A DNA stretch of 64,000 nt from Arthrobacter pigmenti (GTDB taxonomy: Bacteria; Actinomycetota; Actinomycetes; Actinomycetales; Micrococcaceae): NCBI RefSeq assembly GCF_011927905.1, contig NZ_JAATJL010000001.1, forward strand, positions 1,736,001 to 1,800,000, in the 5' to 3' direction. The notes beneath the pieces are model-generated. The model made no database searches, was not told the origin of the DNA, and saw nothing but the letters and a program-made list of their open reading frames with translations. Made by a program: the position numbers and the translations under genes. Each line of letters opens with the position of its first letter. Within the stretch, counting starts at the first letter, position 1. Positions 2,401-38,369 of this stretch are shown piece after piece.

Positions 2401-4083
2401 CTAGTCGCGCGTGAGGCGTCGGTGCGTCACCCTGTGGGGTTTCGCGGCATCCGGTCCAAGCCGCTCAACCTTGTTCTCCTCATAGGCTTCGAAGTTGCCC
2501 TCGAACCAGTACCAGTTATCCGGGTCCTCATCCGTTCCCTCGTACGAGAGGATGTGGGTGGCCACCCGGTCCAGGAACCAGCGATCGTGGGAGACAACAA
2601 CGGCACAGCCCGGGAACTCGAGCAACGCGTTCTCGAGGCTGGACAACGTTTCGACATCGAGGTCGTTGGTGGGCTCATCGAGGAGCAGCAGGTTGCCGCC
2701 CTGCTTCAGGGTCAACGCGAGGTTCAGCCGGTTACGCTCTCCGCCGGAGAGAACTCCCGCCTTCTTCTGCTGGTCTGGTCCTTTGAACCCGAACGCGGAC
2801 ACATAGGCGCGCGAAGGCATCTCGACCTGGCCGACCTGTATGTAGTCGAGGCCGTCGGAAACCACTTCCCACAGCGACTTGTTCGGATCGATTCCTCCGC
2901 GTGACTGGTCCACGTAGGAGATCTTGACGGACTCACCGATCTTGAGTTCCCCGGCGTCGAGCGGTTCGAGTCCGACGATCGTCTTGAAGAGCGTGGTCTT
3001 TCCGACGCCGTTCGGGCCAATGACCCCGACTATGCCGTTACGGGGCAGCGAGAAGGACAGATCATCGATCAGGATGCGGTCGTCATAGCCCTTGCGGAGG
3101 CCGTGCGCTTCGATCACCTGGCTGCCGAGGCGGGGGCCCGGCGGGATCTGAATTTCTTCGAAGTCAAGCTTCCTGGTGCGCTCAGCTTCGGAAGCCATCT
3201 CCTCATAACGTGCGAGGCGGGCCTTGGACTTGGTCTGGCGGCCCTTGGCGTTGGAGCGCACCCACTCGAGTTCCTCGGTGAGCCGCTTGGAGAGCTTCTG
3301 GTCCTTCTTGCCTTGAACCTCGAGGCGCGCACGCTTCTTCTCAAGGTAGGTGGAGTAGTTGCCCTCATACGGGTAGAGGTGTCCGCGGTCCACCTCGGCA
3401 ATCCATTCGGCAACGTGGTCGAGGAAGTAGCGGTCGTGGGTCACGGCGAGGACGGCACCGGGGTACTTCGAGAGGTGCTGCTCAAGCCAAAGCACGCTCT
3501 CGGCGTCCAGGTGGTTGGTGGGCTCGTCAAGCAGAAGGAGGTCCGGCTTCTGCAGGAGCAGCTTGCAGAGCGCAACCCTGCGCCGCTCTCCACCGGAGAG
3601 AATCGAAACGTCGGCGTCCGGCGGCGGGCAGCGAAGGGCGTCCATCGCCTGCTCAAGCTGGGAGTCCAGGTCCCATGCGTCAGCCGTGTCGATGGCCTCC
3701 TGCAGCTTGCCCATCTCATCCAGCAGCGAATCATAGTCCGCGTCCGGGTTCGCCATTTCTTCGGAGATCTCGTTGAAGCGCTGGATTTTGCCGTAGATCT
3801 CGCCGACACCCTCCTGCACGTTGCCGAGTACGGTTTTGTCCTCGTTGAGTGGCGGCTCCTGCAGAAGAATCCCGACCGTATAGCCGGGGCTGAGCCGGGC
3901 TTCACCGTTGGATGGGGTATCCAGACCGGCCATGATCTTCAGGATGGTGGATTTACCGGCACCATTGGGTCCGACCACACCGATCTTCGCGCCAGGATAG
4001 AAGGACATGCTTACGTCGTCGAGGATCACCTTGTCGCCAACGGCCTTTCGGGCCTTGGTCATTGTGTAGATAAATTCCGCCAT
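2401..4083 (-). CDS. ettA: energy-dependent translational throttle ABC-F protein EttA
   Basis: A 560-residue ABC-F ATPase with no membrane domain, which binds the ribosomal E site and gates translation according to energy state. Two nucleotide-binding domains are evident: Walker A GPNGAGKS near residue 40 with signature LSGGERRRVAL and Walker B LLLDEPTNHLD, then GPNGVGKT near residue 360 with LSGGERNRLNLAL and LLLDEPTNDLD. Between them lies the charged P-site tRNA interaction linker (KKRARLEVQGKKDQKLSKRL). The length is that of the EttA family. The start ATG is at 4083. It lies downstream of the small lipoprotein gene and ssbB on the same strand, an association also seen in mycobacteria. The call is secure. 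Confidence 0.95.
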   Translation of the reverse strand: MAEFIYTMTKARKAVGDKVILDDVSMSFYPGAKIGVVGPNGAGKSTILKIMAGLDTPSNGEARLSPGYTVGILLQEPPLNEDKTVLGNVQEGVGEIYGKIQRFNEISEEMANPDADYDSLLDEMGKLQEAIDTADAWDLDSQLEQAMDALRCPPPDADVSILSGGERRRVALCKLLLQKPDLLLLDEPTNHLDAESVLWLEQHLSKYPGAVLAVTHDRYFLDHVAEWIAEVDRGHLYPYEGNYSTYLEKKRARLEVQGKKDQKLSKRLTEELEWVRSNAKGRQTKSKARLARYEEMASEAERTRKLDFEEIQIPPGPRLGSQVIEAHGLRKGYDDRILIDDLSFSLPRNGIVGVIGPNGVGKTTLFKTIVGLEPLDAGELKIGESVKISYVDQSRGGIDPNKSLWEVVSDGLDYIQVGQVEMPSRAYVSAFGFKGPDQQKKAGVLSGGERNRLNLALTLKQGGNLLLLDEPTNDLDVETLSSLENALLEFPGCAVVVSHDRWFLDRVATHILSYEGTDEDPDNWYWFEGNFEAYEENKVERLGPDAAKPHRVTHRRLTRD

Positions 4084-12371: not shown

Positions 12372-12757
12372 AGGATGGGCTGGCCGATACGCCGGGTTCT
12401 GTCCTGCCGACGTCGAACGCCTGCAGTGGCGGCCATCCATCTACGAGCGCCGTTGCCGACGCCCTCCAGCGGCCTACCCGGGCGCTCAGGCGGGCAGCCT
12501 TCAAGCGCGCCCTGTCTGGCCTTGCTCCGGGTGGGGTTTACCTAGCCGCGCCGGTCACCCGGCGCGCTGGTGGTCTCTTACACCACCTTTTCACCCTTAC
12601 CCCGTGCAGCGGACTGCCGGGGCGGTCTATTCTCTGTGGCACTGTCCTGCGGGTTACCCCGAGTGGGCGTTACCCACCACCCTGCCCTGTGGAGCCCGGA
12701 CGTTCCTCGGGAGGAGTATCTGGTACTCCCCACGCGGCCGCCTGGCCAACCCATCCG
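12372..12757 (-). ncRNA. rnpB: RNase P RNA, bacterial type A
   Basis: The minus strand carries the conserved core of RNase P RNA: GAGGAACGTCCGGGCTCC with CACAGGGCAG near the 5' side (around 12690-12710), CCACAGAGAATAGACC (around 12630), and GACAGAACCCGGCGTATC near the 3' end. The terminal helix P1 is a 13-bp pairing of 12744-12756 with 12373-12385 containing one G-U pair, which sets the boundaries to within a few bases. This ribozyme trims 5' leaders from pre-tRNAs. Open frames over this segment on both strands are not genes. Confidence 0.95.
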
Positions 12758-33552: not shown

Positions 33553-34503
33553 TCAGGCCCTCGGGTGCGCCTGCTCGTAACTCCGTCGGAGGCGGTCAAC
33601 CGACACGTGTGTGTAAAGCTGGGTGGTCGAGAGGCTGCGATGCCCGAGAAGTTCCTGGACGGACCGCAGGTCCGCACCGCCGTCGAGCAGGTGCGTTGCT
33701 GCCGTGTGACGCAGCGTGTGGGGGCCCCTAGCGCCGGTGCCTTCAACGGTGCGCAGGAGCTTGTCCACAATTGACCGCGCCTGGCGTTGATCGAGGCGCC
33801 CTCCCCGGGGGCCGAGGAAAAGCGCGGCGCCGCTCTCGGTCCGCACCCACCGAGGCCTTCCTCTTGCCAGCCAGTCGTGGACGGCGTGTGCTGCCGGAAC
33901 GCCGTAGGGAACGGTGCGCTCCCGGTTTCCTTTCCCAAGAACCTTGAGGGTCCGGCGATCAGTATCGAGATCATCGATGTCCAGTCCCACCAGCTCGCCC
34001 ACACGGATCCCGGAGCCGTACAACAGTTCCAGTACCGCACGTGCACGCAGGGCAGCAGGCTCCCCGCCAACGGCCGCCGCCTGCGTTGCCGCCAGCAGAG
34101 GCTCGAGCTGGGACACCGTCAACACATCCGGCAACGCACTTTGTCGTTTTGGCGCCTTGAGGCGAAGGGAAGGGTCCGCCGGGATCAGGTCCTCCCTTGC
34201 CGCCCACGCCAGAAAACTCCGGACGGTAGCTGCCCGGCGTGCCAGCGTGGCTCGGGACTGGCCTGTCCGGTCCAACGAGCCTAGCCACGCCCTCAGGCAG
34301 GAGAGATCGACCTCCTGCAGCGAGGTCAGTCCTTGTCCGGCGGCGAAGGCGGTAAAATGTTCGATATCGCCGCGATAGGCGCGAATCGTGTGGGCAGAGC
34401 GATTTCGTTCCTGTGCGAGATAACGGATGAAGCCCTGAGCCTCATTCGTGAACGCTGGATATCCGGGAGCATCAGCCGCGGCTCCGCTCCCTGTAGTCCT
34501 CAT
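33553..34503 (-). CDS. xerC: tyrosine recombinase XerC
   Basis: A 316-residue site-specific recombinase. Residues 20-105 are the SAM-like core-binding domain (EAQGFIRYLAQERNRSAHTIRAYRGDIEHF); residues 125-310 are the catalytic domain. The catalytic residues are visible: Arg in LLYGSGIRVGELVGL, Lys in VLGKGNRERTVP, His-x-x-Arg in GPHTLRHTAATHLL, His in LLGHRSLSTTQLYTHVS and the nucleophile Tyr in that segment (QLYTH). With its location at the end of the dprA group this is the chromosomal XerC that resolves dimers at dif, not a phage integrase. The start ATG at 34503 is chosen; a longer frame upstream has no similarity. Confidence 0.9.
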   Translation of the reverse strand: MRTTGSGAAADAPGYPAFTNEAQGFIRYLAQERNRSAHTIRAYRGDIEHFTAFAAGQGLTSLQEVDLSCLRAWLGSLDRTGQSRATLARRAATVRSFLAWAAREDLIPADPSLRLKAPKRQSALPDVLTVSQLEPLLAATQAAAVGGEPAALRARAVLELLYGSGIRVGELVGLDIDDLDTDRRTLKVLGKGNRERTVPYGVPAAHAVHDWLARGRPRWVRTESGAALFLGPRGGRLDQRQARSIVDKLLRTVEGTGARGPHTLRHTAATHLLDGGADLRSVQELLGHRSLSTTQLYTHVSVDRLRRSYEQAHPRA

Positions 34504-34641
34504 CACCCGAGCCTGCCTGCCGTAACTGTATCCATAAGCGTGTGTTGTAACCACTGTGAGCCAGGACCTTGAAGACCTCAAGGAGGCGCACCGCGATGCA
34601 TCCTTCCGGCCCTCCGCAGCGACAGCTCACACTGCCGGTCA

Positions 34642-35217
34642 TTACGCCACGGCGGACATCGCTACGGTCGTTTCCAGCTCAAGGAGCGCGCGCTTCACGG
34701 CGACACCCGCCGCGTAACCCGTGATCGCTCCGCCGGAACCCACGACGCGGTGGCCGGGAATGACGATCGAGAGCGGGTTCGCCCTGACGGCGGCGCCTAT
34801 CGCCCGTCCCATGTCCTGGTTACCCATGGCAGCGGCAATGTCCTTATAGGTACGCGTTTCACCGTACGGAATCTCCGAGACAGCTGCCCACACCTCGCGT
34901 TGGAAATCGGTTCCACGGTTCAACACGTAGGGGATCCTGTCAGCTATCTGTCCGCTGAAGTAACCTTCGAGCCATTCAGTAGCGACGCGGAACACCTCCG
35001 CGGCATTCTCGCTCTCCAAGCGGGCCGCATCTACGCTTCCGGCTTCCGATCCTCTTGGGTTGTCAGCTTCGCCGGCGAGCGGGTCAAAAGGCGCACCGAG
35101 GAGGACAGGAGACGGCTCAGGTGAGTGGTACTCATGATAGACACCGGTCAGGCCGCCCCCGCGGGCCACCAGAACCAGTCCACCGATCGGACTATCGAAA
35201 ATCGTGAAAGTTGTCAT
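34642..35217 (-). CDS. Ogt/MGMT-family alkyltransferase-like protein lacking the active-site Cys
   Basis: A 191-residue protein of the O6-alkylguanine-DNA alkyltransferase fold, starting at ATG 35217 (AAGGAAA upstream). The C-terminal domain is well kept: FQREVWAAVSEIPYGETRTYKDIAAAMGN, the arginine-finger helix MGRAIGAAVRANPLSIVIP, and SGGAITGYAAGVAVKRALLELE. The active-site motif PCHRV is PGHRV here: residue 155 is Gly (codon GGC, 34753-34755), one base from Cys TGC. It cannot therefore accept the alkyl group by the normal suicide reaction. Alkyltransferase-like (ATL) proteins also lack the Cys, but carry Trp or Ala. Either this is a Gly-type ATL that flags damage for nucleotide excision repair, or a recently inactivated ogt. 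It lies 52 bases downstream of dprA. Confidence 0.85.
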   Translation of the reverse strand: MTTFTIFDSPIGGLVLVARGGGLTGVYHEYHSPEPSPVLLGAPFDPLAGEADNPRGSEAGSVDAARLESENAAEVFRVATEWLEGYFSGQIADRIPYVLNRGTDFQREVWAAVSEIPYGETRTYKDIAAAMGNQDMGRAIGAAVRANPLSIVIPGHRVVGSGGAITGYAAGVAVKRALLELETTVAMSAVA

Positions 35218-35269
35218 GGTCGTGCATTTCCTTTGTGAATGTGTAGGTGTGCCTGAATTGTGGAAGGAC

Positions 35270-36475
35270 CTAGTGCCGTGTCTTGCGCCACCCGCCGTCG
35301 TCGGACCGTTCCGCCAGCTTGTCCGCCTCAAGGCGCCCGAGACCCGAGAGGACGCCCGGCAGGCTGAGCCCGGCAACCGACGCAAGCTTGTCCACCGTCG
35401 AAGACGCCCTGACCGGCAATGCATCAAGAAGCAGGAGGTCCTCCACTGTCAATCCGTCGTGGACGGCTTTGACCGCAGGACGTTCCGGCCCTGACACCAA
35501 TGCCAAAGGGCCGGCAAGCTCGGCGATTTCGGCTGCATCAGTGACGCAGATGGCACTGCCATCGCGGAGGAGTCGGTGACACCCCGCCGAATTAGCGGAT
35601 TGGATAGACCCGGGCACGGCTCCGACTGCGCGCCCGAGACCAGCGGCATGGTGTGCCGTGTTGAGGGCGCCGGAGCGCCACCGGGCTTCGGCGACCACCG
35701 TGACCGCGCTCAAGGCTGCGATGAGCCTGTTTCGCTGGAGGAAGCGCCAACGAGACGGAGCTGAGCCCGGAGGGACCTCCGAGACCAGCAAACCCCTGCG
35801 GGCGATTTCCCTCAGGAGCTCTTCGTTGCCAGCCGGGTAGTAGCGGTCAATGCCGCATGCCAATACACCGAGGGTAGGAAGCGGGTGGTCTTCCCGCGCG
35901 GTCATCAGCGCCGAGCGATGGGCCTGCGCATCAATACCATAGGCTCCGCCCGAGACCACCGTGTACCCGCGGTTAACCAGTCCGGCCGCCATCTCTGCCG
36001 TGACCGAGGAGCCGTAACTGGTACTGTCGCGCGATCCCACGATGGCCACCACCCGTTCGAGCGGAGGAATGGTTGTAGGAGACTCGCCTCGTACCCACAG
36101 GCACAGCGGCATTCCGAGCTGAAGGTCGGTGAGTGCAGCCGGCCAAGCCTCCGACTCCGGAGTCAGCAGGGTACCGCCAAAGCGTTTCACCGTCTCCAGA
36201 TCGCGCAGGGGTACCAGGCTGTCCTTCCTTGAACCCCACCGGGCAACCGCTCCGGTCAATACGTCGGTGCGCACCTGGTGACCGGTGTCAGCGAGAACCT
36301 CGAGGAACGCACGGTGCAGGGTGGGCCCGCAGCGGGTGCGGCCGGTTGCGATTCCCAACGCCTCTTCTGGCCCCGCGGCTGCGACCAGGGCCATCCCGAT
36401 GTTGTCAGAGGGTTCGAACAATCGGGACAGCGCTGCTCGGGCAATCTGTACCTGACTCCAGTCGGCGGCGCTCAT
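35270..36475 (-). CDS. dprA: DNA-processing protein DprA
   Basis: A 401-residue protein that loads RecA on incoming single-stranded DNA in transformation and is widely conserved in non-competent bacteria. The Rossmann-like DNA_processg_A domain has ERVVAIVGSRDSTSYGSSVTAEMAAGL, YTVVSGGAYGIDAQAHRSAL, VLACGIDRYYPAGNEELL, FLQRNRLIAALSAVTVVAEARWRSGALNTA and GRAVGAVPGSIQSANSAGCHRLLRDGSAI. N-terminal residues 1-110 resemble a SAM-like extension, and the C-terminal 60 a winged helix (SSTVDKLASVAGLSLPGVLSGLGRLEADKL). Its ATG overlaps the yifB stop (ATGA), so both are coupled. Confidence 0.94.
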   Translation of the reverse strand: MSAADWSQVQIARAALSRLFEPSDNIGMALVAAAGPEEALGIATGRTRCGPTLHRAFLEVLADTGHQVRTDVLTGAVARWGSRKDSLVPLRDLETVKRFGGTLLTPESEAWPAALTDLQLGMPLCLWVRGESPTTIPPLERVVAIVGSRDSTSYGSSVTAEMAAGLVNRGYTVVSGGAYGIDAQAHRSALMTAREDHPLPTLGVLACGIDRYYPAGNEELLREIARRGLLVSEVPPGSAPSRWRFLQRNRLIAALSAVTVVAEARWRSGALNTAHHAAGLGRAVGAVPGSIQSANSAGCHRLLRDGSAICVTDAAEIAELAGPLALVSGPERPAVKAVHDGLTVEDLLLLDALPVRASSTVDKLASVAGLSLPGVLSGLGRLEADKLAERSDDGGWRKTRH

Positions 36476-38013
36476 GCTGCGTCCTGCTGGGTCCTGAAGA
36501 CCAGTGCCAGTTCAACGTCGTCACTGCTCGGTATTGATTTCCCGGCGAGGTCCGCTACGCTCCACGCGACGCGCAGCACTCGGTCATAGCCACGCTTGGT
36601 TATTGCCCCTTGCTCCATGGTTAGATCCAGCGACTTTGTTGCCTTGCGAGACAGGCGAAGTTCATCATGAAGCAATTTGGCGGGAACCTCTGCGTTGGTA
36701 TGGAAGCCCCATTGGAACAGCCGGTCCCGCTGCATTTCCCGTGCCCCTGCGACCCTGGCGGCAACCGCGGCACTCGTGTCGGTAGCTGGAGAGCCTGAGA
36801 AGTCCTTCAGCGCCACACGGTGCATGGCCAACTGCAGGTCAACCCGGTCAAGGAGTGGCGCCGAAATCCGGCCGAAGTAGAGCCTTCGCTGCTGCGCGGA
36901 ACATGTGCAGTTCATGCCTTTGCCGCTCGCCAGACCGCACGGGCACGGATTCGCGGCAAGAACCAGCTGGAATCTGGCCGGATATGTTGCTGTACCGGCC
37001 GCACGGTGCAACACAAGCTCGCCACTTTCCAACGGCTCCCGCAACGCATCGAGAATTCGGCGCTGGTACTCAGGCGCCTCGTCCAGGAAGAGGACGCCCC
37101 GGTGTGCCCGCGAGGCTGCACCGGGACGCGGAATCCCGCTTCCCCCGCCGATGATGGAGGCGGCGCTGGCTGTGTGATGAGGGCTCTCGAACGGTGGCCT
37201 GCGGCGCAGTTCACGACACGCAACGGCGCTACTGAGCGAATGGATCGCGGTCACCTGCATGGCCTGCTCGTCCGTGAGATTAGGCAGTATGCCCGGGATC
37301 CGCTCTGCGAGCATGGTTTTTCCCGCACCGGGCGGGCCGACCATCATGAGGTGGTGCGCCCCGGCCGCGGCGACCTCCACAGCAAGGCGTGCATCTGACT
37401 GCCCGGCGACGTCGGACATGTCCTTGGGCACAATCGCGACGTCCCTGGGTTGAGCCATGCGGGAGAGTTCCGGCTGGTCCGGTGTGGGAAGCTCCACTGC
37501 GGCAGCGTCCGCCCCGAAAGCCAGTGCCACCTCCGCCAGAGAATCAAAGCCACGGACCACCGCCTGCGGAACGAGGGCGGCTTCGGCGGCGTTATCGCTT
37601 GCCACGACGATATTCGGATAGCCTGCCTCGACGGCAGCCATGACCGCCGGCAGGACACCGTTGATTGCCCGGAGGCGACCGTCGAGGCCGAGCTCGGATA
37701 GAAAGACGGTGCGGCCGCAGTTCCGGATGTCTCCGGCAGCGGCCAGCGCTGACATGACGATTGCGAGGTCGAAACCGGATCCACGCTTCGGCAGAGACGC
37801 CGGAATCAGGTTCACTGTGATCTTCCGCCGGGTCAGCGGCAGTCCGGCATTCCGGGCCGCTGCCCGGATCCGCTCCCGGGCTTCCGACAAGGAAGCATCT
37901 GGTAGGCCCAACAGGACGAAAGCGGGCAGCGTCTGCCCGATGTCAGATTCGACCTCGACAATGTACCCGTTCAGTCCCACCAGTGAGATGGCGTACGTGC
38001 GGCCGAGCGGCAT
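36472..38013 (-). CDS. YifB/ComM family Mg-chelatase-like AAA+ ATPase
   Basis: A 513-residue protein related to ComM, a helicase that promotes branch migration in natural transformation. Residues 1-160 form a Lon-protease-like N-terminal domain (LVGLNGYIVEVESDIGQTLPAFVLLGLPDASLSEARERIRAA). The AAA+ module contains MMVGPPGAGKTMLAERIPGILP (Walker A), a His-rich segment PHHTASAASIIGGGSGIPRPGAASRAHRGVLFLDEAPEY (Walker B) and LVLAANPCPCG. The C-terminal Mg-chelatase domain ends RVLRVAWSVADLAGKSIPSSDDVELAL. It overlaps yraN by one base upstream and dprA downstream, forming the conserved yraN-yifB-dprA group. Confidence 0.94.
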   Translation of the reverse strand: MPLGRTYAISLVGLNGYIVEVESDIGQTLPAFVLLGLPDASLSEARERIRAAARNAGLPLTRRKITVNLIPASLPKRGSGFDLAIVMSALAAAGDIRNCGRTVFLSELGLDGRLRAINGVLPAVMAAVEAGYPNIVVASDNAAEAALVPQAVVRGFDSLAEVALAFGADAAAVELPTPDQPELSRMAQPRDVAIVPKDMSDVAGQSDARLAVEVAAAGAHHLMMVGPPGAGKTMLAERIPGILPNLTDEQAMQVTAIHSLSSAVACRELRRRPPFESPHHTASAASIIGGGSGIPRPGAASRAHRGVLFLDEAPEYQRRILDALREPLESGELVLHRAAGTATYPARFQLVLAANPCPCGLASGKGMNCTCSAQQRRLYFGRISAPLLDRVDLQLAMHRVALKDFSGSPATDTSAAVAARVAGAREMQRDRLFQWGFHTNAEVPAKLLHDELRLSRKATKSLDLTMEQGAITKRGYDRVLRVAWSVADLAGKSIPSSDDVELALVFRTQQDAA

Positions 38014-38369
38014 CAGCTCACCGCCCGAAGGTGGTCAATCACCGGTGCGTTGACGCCGTCGTCGACGATCGCGACCGCATCCACACGGAACCCTGAGAAC
38101 CGAAGGTCGTGTGCGCGTGCCCACCGCGAGGCAAGGAGATACAGCCGCTCCAGCTTGCCCGGCGTGATGGCCTCGAGCGGATGGCCAAACTTCTCCGTGG
38201 ACCTGGTCTTTACCTCGACCACCACCAAAGTGGCGCCGTCGACGGCCACGAGGTCGATCTCGCCTACCGTGCACCGCCAGTTCCGGTCAATGACCCGGAG
38301 CCCGGCGTCTTCCAGAAACCGGGCGGCCAGCGCTTCACCGCGCCTGCCCAGCTCGTCCTTTGTTTTCAT
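38013..38369 (-). CDS. yraN: UPF0102 (YraN) family nuclease-fold protein
   Basis: A 118-residue small protein with a restriction-endonuclease-like fold. Motif: GRRGEALAARFLEDAGLRVIDRNWRC, then the PD-(D/E)xK-type core GEIDLVAVDGATLVVVEVKTRS with Asp, Glu and Lys in place. It ends RFSGFRVDAVAIVDDG. The family function is not proven, although it is usually coupled with yifB and dprA, as here. The ribosome-binding site (CGGAGG) is inside the right arm of a hairpin (38377-38413), so translation may be hindered when that hairpin is folded. Confidence 0.92.
   Translation of the reverse strand: MKTKDELGRRGEALAARFLEDAGLRVIDRNWRCTVGEIDLVAVDGATLVVVEVKTRSTEKFGHPLEAITPGKLERLYLLASRWARAHDLRFSGFRVDAVAIVDDGVNAPVIDHLRAVS

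What the first reader, a model, noticed from the sequence alone, without database searches (positions are those of the whole stretch)
34642..35217. Ogt/MGMT-family protein with the catalytic Cys replaced by Gly (PGHR)
The DNA reads CCC GGC CAC CGC at the active site, giving P-G-H-R in place of P-C-H-R, while the arginine-finger helix and the rest of the fold are intact. The change is one base (TGC to GGC). Cys-less relatives (ATL proteins) are known to bind O6-alkylguanine and recruit nucleotide excision repair, but those I know carry Trp or Ala at this site. A Gly version in a dprA-linked position could be a different ATL variant or a fresh loss of function.
Basis: partly seen in the sequence, partly recalled or inferred. 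Interest (0 to 1): 0.72.

Follow-up and report, generated by a model that had tools for sequence, protein, structure and literature searches.

The report
Cysteine-less Ogt relative beside dprA
A DNA-repair protein that normally removes alkyl groups with one cysteine has, in this group of bacteria, lost that cysteine for good (glycine in two genera, threonine in a third) and been kept, so it probably now recognises damaged DNA without repairing it itself.

Summary
Window 34642-35217 (-) encodes a 191-aa Ogt-like protein with PGHR where Ogt has PCHR, and no cysteine. It is no read error or fresh loss: all 36 same-genus orthologues (38 genomes searched) have Gly, through all four Gly codons, under purifying selection. 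The gene lies directly downstream of dprA. At that place one further genus has Gly (2 of 2 genomes) and another Thr (29 of 29). The Cys-less proteins form one clade (100/98) against 81 cysteine rows; every unlinked Ogt read had Cys. Equivalents of Tyr114, Arg128, Asn137, His146 and Glu172 are invariant in the genus; the helix-turn-helix gained basic residues. The same genomes keep a cysteine Ogt (35 of 36) and an ATL homologue (38 of 38; Trp read in 25 of 30 loci). Most likely it is a lesion-binding sensor made from a two-domain Ogt: it would work like an ATL but fails three ATL features (Trp, no N-terminal domain, no Asn hinge). Lesion binding, UvrA contact and any link to DprA are untested; structure prediction failed (pLDDT 37.6). 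New variant of a known kind.

The parts
34642..35217 (-). Ogt-like CDS, 191 aa, no Cys residue (P0001)
34753..34755 (-). codon GGC, Gly155, in place of the catalytic Cys (C145 of human MGMT)
34750..34752 (-). His156 (H146 of MGMT), invariant
34672..34674 (-). Glu182 (E172 of MGMT), invariant
34804..34806 (-). Arg138, arginine finger (R128 of MGMT), invariant in the 59 Cys-less rows
34846..34848 (-). Tyr124 (Y114 of MGMT), 36 of 36 in the genus
34777..34779 (-). Asn147, Asn hinge (N137 of MGMT), kept, 36 of 36 in the genus
35125..35136 (-). H28-x-x-H31 of the YHExHxPxP motif, invariant in the genus
35229..35234 (-). AAAGGA, Shine-Dalgarno-like, before the ATG
35270..36475 (-). dprA, stop 52 nt before the Ogt-like start
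   Evidence: gene name recalled
36472..38013 (-). comM (YifB-type), overlaps dprA
   Evidence: gene name recalled
38013..38369 (-). yraN-like ORF
   Evidence: gene name recalled
33553..34581 (-). xerC-like tyrosine recombinase ORF (as listed, from a TTG), downstream of the Ogt-like gene
   Evidence: gene name recalled

Best explanation
It is a member of an old, cysteine-less branch of Ogt that can no longer transfer an alkyl group to itself. SHOWN by sequence: the nucleophile is replaced by Gly (this genus and one other) or Thr (a third genus), always directly downstream of dprA where that could be tested; the base-flipping and pocket residues are kept in this genus; the gene is under purifying selection. 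INFERRED: it still binds DNA, flips out O6-alkylguanine (or a similar lesion) and, having no nucleophile, stays bound. The bound complex then acts as a flag for another pathway, most likely nucleotide excision repair (UvrA/UvrC) as for ATL proteins. The extra basic residues in the helix-turn-helix (K/R at 125; R145 in this genus) would favour tight binding. Confidence near 0.95 that it is a conserved protein that is not a Cys-based transferase; about 0.55 for the ATL-like lesion-sensor function.
For: Gly in 36 of 36 same-genus orthologues; Thr in 29 of 29 and Gly in 2 of 2 genomes of two other genera of the family. One Cys-less clade, 59 rows against 81 Cys rows, support 100/98 (58 rows, 100/97 in the earlier tree). 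Kept in 36 of 36: Y124, R138, N147, H156, R157, Y168, K175, E182. Clade-specific basic residue at 125: 35 of 36 and 21 of 21 rows, against Gly in 67 of 81 Cys rows; mean net charge of residues 116-148 is +2.6 and +3.2 against +1.3. dN/dS 0.11-0.37 in eight same-genus pairs. P0001 has no Cys; 23 of 36 trimmed genus rows have none and no column is Cys in 80% or more of them. Published analogue: SsOGT C119A was crystallised bound to O6-methylguanine DNA (PMC4605297, passages).
Against: No binding or NER data. A homologue of the W-type ATL is in 38 of 38 genomes of the genus, so a second sensor would be partly redundant. The N-terminal domain and Asn hinge, absent from ATLs (PMC10779285 section 3.5), are kept. 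The catalytic His and Glu are also kept without a nucleophile to serve. The two g55 proteins have His for the Asn hinge, Phe or Ser for Tyr158 and no GG loop, and their helix-turn-helix is not more basic (+0.5), so lesion binding may not be general. No usable structural model. Column 170 (human G160) is Ala/Ser in the genus, against Gly in 65 of 81 Cys rows, which may narrow the pocket.
Confidence: 0.55

Rival explanations
1. A DNA-binding helper of the comM-dprA-xerC operon: it uses the Ogt scaffold to bind DNA in recombination or natural transformation, whether or not the DNA carries a lesion.
For: dprA is beside the gene in all members tested: 35 of 35 same-genus genomes, 29 of 29 and 2 of 2 in the other genera; gap to the dprA stop 1-121 nt in 24 genes measured; no terminator-like site between dprA and the gene in the window. 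The helix-turn-helix is more basic than in Cys Ogts in the two larger genera.
Against: Operon position next to housekeeping genes can be neutral. The flipping and pocket residues (Arg finger, Tyr, Asn hinge, His, Glu) would not need to be invariant.
Confidence: 0.17
2. A shield or regulator: it binds the lesion or a promoter and protects it or controls genes, without feeding NER.
For: Inactive human C145A AGT in E. coli is reported to increase killing and mutation by MNNG, i.e. a Cys-less AGT can block repair (title in the reference list of PMC10779285; the paper itself not read).
Against: A lesion-blocking protein should be harmful, yet the Cys-less form is fixed in 67 of 67 genomes with the gene. 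No extra domain was reported by Pfam.
Confidence: 0.1
3. A turnover dealkylase: water held by His156 and Glu182 in the space left by Cys attacks the alkyl group, giving a true enzyme instead of a suicide protein.
For: His, Glu and Tyr of the catalytic network are invariant in 36 of 36 although no Cys is left.
Against: Thr at the same place in the third genus leaves less space and no common chemistry; the same residues also shape the fold and pocket. No precedent known to me.
Confidence: 0.06
4. A decaying relic or a sequencing error.
For: Higher dN/dS than dprA and xerC in all eight same-genus pairs.
Against: 36 of 36 Gly with all four codons, no internal stops in the 36 best hits, dN/dS 0.11-0.37, ribosome-binding sites kept in the 24 genes looked at.
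Confidence: 0.02

Closest known systems
Ogt / AGT (methylated-DNA--protein-cysteine methyltransferase), e.g. Mycobacterium tuberculosis Ogt (PDB 4bhb, 4wx9; organism recalled and named in PMC10779285 and PMC5751216)
   Same: Alignment over both domains (profile 1-171 on chain 1-158, 164.6 bits); PF01035 and TIGR00589; Arg finger, Tyr, Asn hinge, PxHR His, Glu kept.
   Different: The catalytic Cys is Gly or Thr in every member; the gene is directly downstream of dprA; basic residue at 125 and (in this genus) at 145.
ATL proteins (S. pombe Atl1, E. coli and Vibrio ATL; PDB 3gva, 2kif; 2kif as the Vibrio ATL is recalled)
   Same: No catalytic Cys, helix-turn-helix with Arg finger and Tyr kept; likely lesion binding without repair.
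   Different: ATLs have Trp at the site in most cases, no N-terminal domain and no Asn hinge (PMC10779285 section 3.5); this protein has Gly, an N-terminal part and the hinge, and its profile scores Atl1 at only 51.1 bits and 2kif at 31.6. The same genomes carry a separate ATL, PWWR where read.
Thermus thermophilus TTHA1564
   Same: A Cys-less relative; [quoted passage not shown]
   Different: Different lineage; not compared by sequence here.
SsOGT C119A and human MGMT C145A (laboratory mutants)
   Same: An otherwise complete AGT with the nucleophile removed; C119A was crystallised bound to O6-methylguanine DNA (PMC4605297 passages).
   Different: Man-made single changes; here natural, fixed, with further co-occurring changes.

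Membership tests
Ogt/AGT alkyltransferase | Catalytic Cys in PCHR | tested here: not met
   Gly or Thr in all 67 genomes with the dprA-linked gene
Ogt/AGT alkyltransferase | DNA-binding domain over curated cut-off | tested here: met
   PF01035 105.9 bits, TIGR00589 102.7 bits
Ogt/AGT alkyltransferase | N-terminal domain | tested here: met
   The Cys-less profile aligns to a whole Ogt chain from residue 1; but Pfam reported no N-domain model at E 0.001 and there is no usable model
Ogt/AGT alkyltransferase | Arg finger, flipping Tyr, Asn hinge, active-site His and Glu | tested here: met
   36 of 36 genus rows each; in g55 the Asn hinge is His in 2 of 2
Ogt/AGT alkyltransferase | Alkyl transfer activity | not testable with these tools
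   P0001 has no Cys, so self-transfer to a thiol is excluded
ATL | No catalytic Cys | tested here: met
ATL | Trp at the site (most ATLs) | tested here: not met
   Gly or Thr
ATL | No N-terminal domain | tested here: not met
   N-terminal part aligns with that of a solved Ogt
ATL | Asn hinge missing | tested here: not met
   Asn147 in 36 of 36; Asn in 20 of 21 Thr rows; His in 2 of 2 g55 rows
ATL | HTH with Arg finger and Tyr | tested here: met
ATL | Tight binding of O6-alkylguanine DNA | not testable with these tools
   needs a binding assay
ATL | Contact with UvrA/UvrC | not testable with these tools
   needs a pull-down
ATL | Branches with ATLs | tested here: inconclusive
   The Cys-less clade groups with Cys Ogts, but no ATL rows were put in the trees

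The most novel reading that the evidence does not exclude
The suicide enzyme Ogt was converted once, in the ancestor of three genera, into a non-catalytic adaptor that recognises O6-alkylguanine and works with its operon partners DprA, ComM and XerC, so that alkylated DNA is handed to recombination (or handled during DNA uptake) instead of, or besides, excision repair. Here the loss of the nucleophile is the functional step and the replacing residue (Gly or Thr) matters little.
Probability: 0.12. Interest if true: 0.82.

Novelty: new variant of a known kind. Interest (0 to 1): 0.57.

Why it matters
The Cys-less relatives of AGT described in the review read here are short, mostly tryptophan-bearing ATLs. 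Here a two-domain Ogt appears to have lost its nucleophile once, at a fixed chromosomal site, and has been kept for the depth of three genera with two different residues in its place, in genomes that also hold cysteine Ogt and ATL genes. That is a natural experiment on what the AGT scaffold is good for without its chemistry, and it warns that the family name these genes match ('methylated-DNA--protein-cysteine methyltransferase') does not fit them. It also gives a direct test of whether lesion recognition is tied to a dprA operon.

Tried and rejected
Rejected: read error or pseudogene (Gly fixed in 36 of 36, all four codons). Rejected: Gly-Ogt as the only alkylguanine protein of the cell (PCHR Ogt and PWWR ATL present). 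Rejected for the loci read: selenocysteine at the site in relatives whose hits list a TGA; in L087 and L095 the site is TGC. Rejected: that the dprA-linked gene of other genera keeps Cys (Thr in 29 of 29, Gly in 2 of 2).

Pattern and profile scans of viral contigs for PGHR gave nothing. Attempts to name the genus or family through plasmid records failed. The single-sequence AlphaFold model is useless (mean pLDDT 37.6). Seven literature searches (open-access library only, listings seen) showed no natural Gly or Thr version; most subscription papers are not in that library.

Rows dropped: in the second Ogt tree 35 same-genus PCHR rows, 8 Ada-type rows, one ordinary Ogt row (the second row of L182) and L038 were left out, and Ada-type rows of the new loci were skipped by a motif; the Ada-type row of L182 stayed among the Cys rows by mistake. 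A1 left out L026 (long frame); A2 used 28 rows. The six g61 genomes first met are not in the trees or in the pocket table. In the DprA tree the own genome is in twice. One g61 xerC pair aligned over only 22 codons and is void; three of the six g61 pairs have dS of 0.03 or less, too few changes to judge (their dN/dS 0, 0.27, 0.35; the other three 0.05-0.07). Second dprA-like copies of G038 and G041 (L160, L161) were not counted as dprA loci. Output was cut; its summary lines were complete.

Full report
What is there. The minus-strand frame 35217-34642 encodes 191 aa with P154-G155-H156-R157, the Gly codon being GGC at 34755-34753. The protein has no cysteine at all. Pfam PF01035 and NCBIfam TIGR00589 match well over their cut-offs. 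The ATG has a Shine-Dalgarno-like AAAGGA and lies 52 nt behind the dprA stop. The order on the minus strand is yraN-comM-dprA-this gene-xerC (gene names recalled), and no terminator-like site lies between dprA and the gene (the three sites found in that region equal the chance number).

The rest of the genome. The held genome (3.79 Mb, one contig) has two more PF01035 proteins over the cut-off: a 166-aa PCHR Ogt next to an ORF that looks like an AraC-AlkA fusion, and an ATL with PWWR. So the Gly protein is not the cell's only member of the superfamily. In the genus, a second Ogt hit exists in 35 of the 36 genomes with the Gly protein (G032 has none) and the 35 rows read all have Cys. A homologue of the W-type ATL is found in 38 of 38 genomes; of the 30 loci held, PWWR was read in 25 by a simple pattern, which did not match the other 5.

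Gly is fixed in the genus. The genus search covered 38 genomes; 36 have the orthologue and the two without are 68% and 83% complete. All 36 have Gly: 30, L057 and L059, L073-L075, L102. Over 37 distinct PGHR sequences (36 here, one from genus g55) the codons are GGA 13, GGC 11, GGG 9, GGT 4. In 29 aligned rows, as low as 41% identical to the window protein, PGHR is invariant while mean column identity is 39%. dN/dS is 0.11-0.37 in eight same-genus pairs, against 0.08-0.22 for dprA and 0.02-0.11 for xerC in the same pairs: higher than its neighbours in every pair but plainly constrained. In six g61 pairs it is 0.05-0.07 in the three with enough change; the other three have too few changes to judge.

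The dprA link defines a subfamily. dprA lies beside the gene in all 35 same-genus genomes tested (G030 was fetched too short to test) and xerC is in the stretch in 34 of them (not in G032). dprA neighbourhoods were then read in 20 genomes of 17 other genera of the family: in g61 (4 of 4) and g55 (1 of 1) an Ogt-like gene also follows dprA; in the remaining 15 genomes none was found, and xerC is the neighbour except in G099, where a LytR-type ORF lies between. Reading all 29 held g61 genomes gave Thr (PTHR) in 29 of 29, all with dprA in the stretch. g55 has two genomes held, both PGHR and dprA-linked. Thus 67 of 67 genomes with this gene lack the Cys. The g61 and g55 genomes whose unlinked Ogt was read carry PCHR there.

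Elsewhere the site is Cys. Outside these genera: L063-L067 and, unlinked, L060-L062 (eight of eight); 24 of the 26 order-level loci L076-L101 (the other two, L080 and L082, are the g61 Thr genes); 28 of 28 class-level loci and 18 of 18 family loci with a hit; and 45 of 45 phylum- and order-level loci, one gene being in twice. These are samples: 295 family, 297 order, 345 class and 396 phylum genomes were searched, and only the loci named were read; hits lower in those lists were not.

One origin. In a tree of 137 rows the 58 Cys-less rows form one clade, 100/97. In a second tree with more Cys rows and both g55 rows, 59 Cys-less and 81 Cys rows separate at 100/98; Gly rows of this genus 91/97, Thr rows 100/98, g55 rows 100/100 on a long branch. 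The roots are midpoints, so in the second tree one side of a branch is what is shown; in the first the clade is nested among Cys rows. Which of Gly or Thr came first is not resolved. A DprA tree puts the three genera as separate groups near each other and some others, with weak deep order; it gives no sign that the Ogt-like gene moved alone, but does not exclude it.

What is kept and what changed (human MGMT numbers recalled). Kept in 36 of 36: equivalents of Tyr114, Arg128, Asn137, His146, Arg147, Tyr158, Lys165 and Glu172. Changed against the Cys rows: position 125 (next to the flipping Tyr) is K/R in 35 of 36 and 21 of 21, Gly in 67 of 81 Cys rows; 136 is Met or Lys; 145 is Arg in 36 of 36 of this genus (Ala/Ser in g61), Gly in 71 of 81; 174 lost the usual Arg. 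The helix-turn-helix is more basic than in Cys Ogts in the two larger genera (+2.6, +3.2 against +1.3) but not in g55 (+0.5). The two g55 proteins have His for the Asn hinge, Phe or Ser for Tyr158, and no GG loop, so they may do something else. No column is Cys in 80% of the rows of this genus; g61 has a conserved Cys pair at columns 92-93 and one more Cys column near the C-terminus.

How it most likely works. Shown: no thiol at the site, conserved scaffold, selection, operon-like place. Inferred: binding and flipping of O6-alkylguanine without transfer, and recruitment of another pathway. Support from the literature: ATLs bind such lesions tightly and contact UvrA and UvrC (PMC10779285, sections 3.5 and 5.6 read), and SsOGT with its Cys changed to Ala was crystallised on methylated DNA (PMC4605297, passages). 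Against it: the genus already has an ATL, the hinge and N-terminal part that ATLs lack are kept, and there are no experiments. Rivals are a lesion-blind helper of the dprA operon, a shield or regulator, and a water-using turnover enzyme; the Thr version speaks against the last.

Known or new. By sequence it is closest to Ogt: the best solved relatives are Ogt chains matched over both domains (164.9 bits for 4wxd, 164.6 for 4bhb), whereas Atl1 scores 51.1 and 2kif 31.6. By definition it is neither a working Ogt (no Cys) nor an ATL (wrong residue, N-terminal part, Asn hinge). I found no report of a natural Gly or Thr version in seven searches of the open library (listings). Of six papers I saw more: three sections (3.5, 4, 5.6) and passages of PMC10779285, and passages only of PMC7216122, PMC3788762, PMC4605297, PMC5751216 and PMC6499797. 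C. elegans AGT-2 shows that the motif can drift in another way (PCHP, Cys kept; PMC6499797 passage).

Limits. The structure prediction failed. What the protein does rests on inference.

Noticed in passing
g61 loci L164-L181, L140-L142 (columns at P0001 92-93 and near the C-terminus): The Thr-type proteins carry a conserved Cys-Cys pair (RCCF) and a further conserved Cys near the C-terminus; in the rows compared no other group has them. Possible metal site, disulfide or alternative acceptor.
   Followed up: partly
window 35125-35136: Invariant YHExHxPxP motif (H28, H31) in the N-terminal part of the Gly-type proteins; at the first His position Cys Ogts have Met in 38 of 81 rows and no other residue so often.
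   Followed up: partly
L144 1477-944 (-), L244 3009-2551 (-): The two g55 dprA-linked PGHR proteins have His for the Asn hinge, Phe/Ser for Tyr158 and no GG loop; perhaps a further change of function.
   Followed up: partly
L003 1258-1896 (-): The genome's W-type ATL has a tandem protein repeat (NGLPALAGAHAGALAHYA-like) in its N-terminal part; G028 shows three neighbouring ATL-like pieces at C10:68140-69093.
   Followed up: no
L148 about 2680-3830 (+): In G099 a 383-aa LytR-CpsA-Psr-like ORF (name recalled) sits between dprA and xerC, so this gap holds other genes in other genera.
   Followed up: no
window 12372-12753 (-): RNase P RNA, class A, full length (308.1 bits).
   Followed up: no
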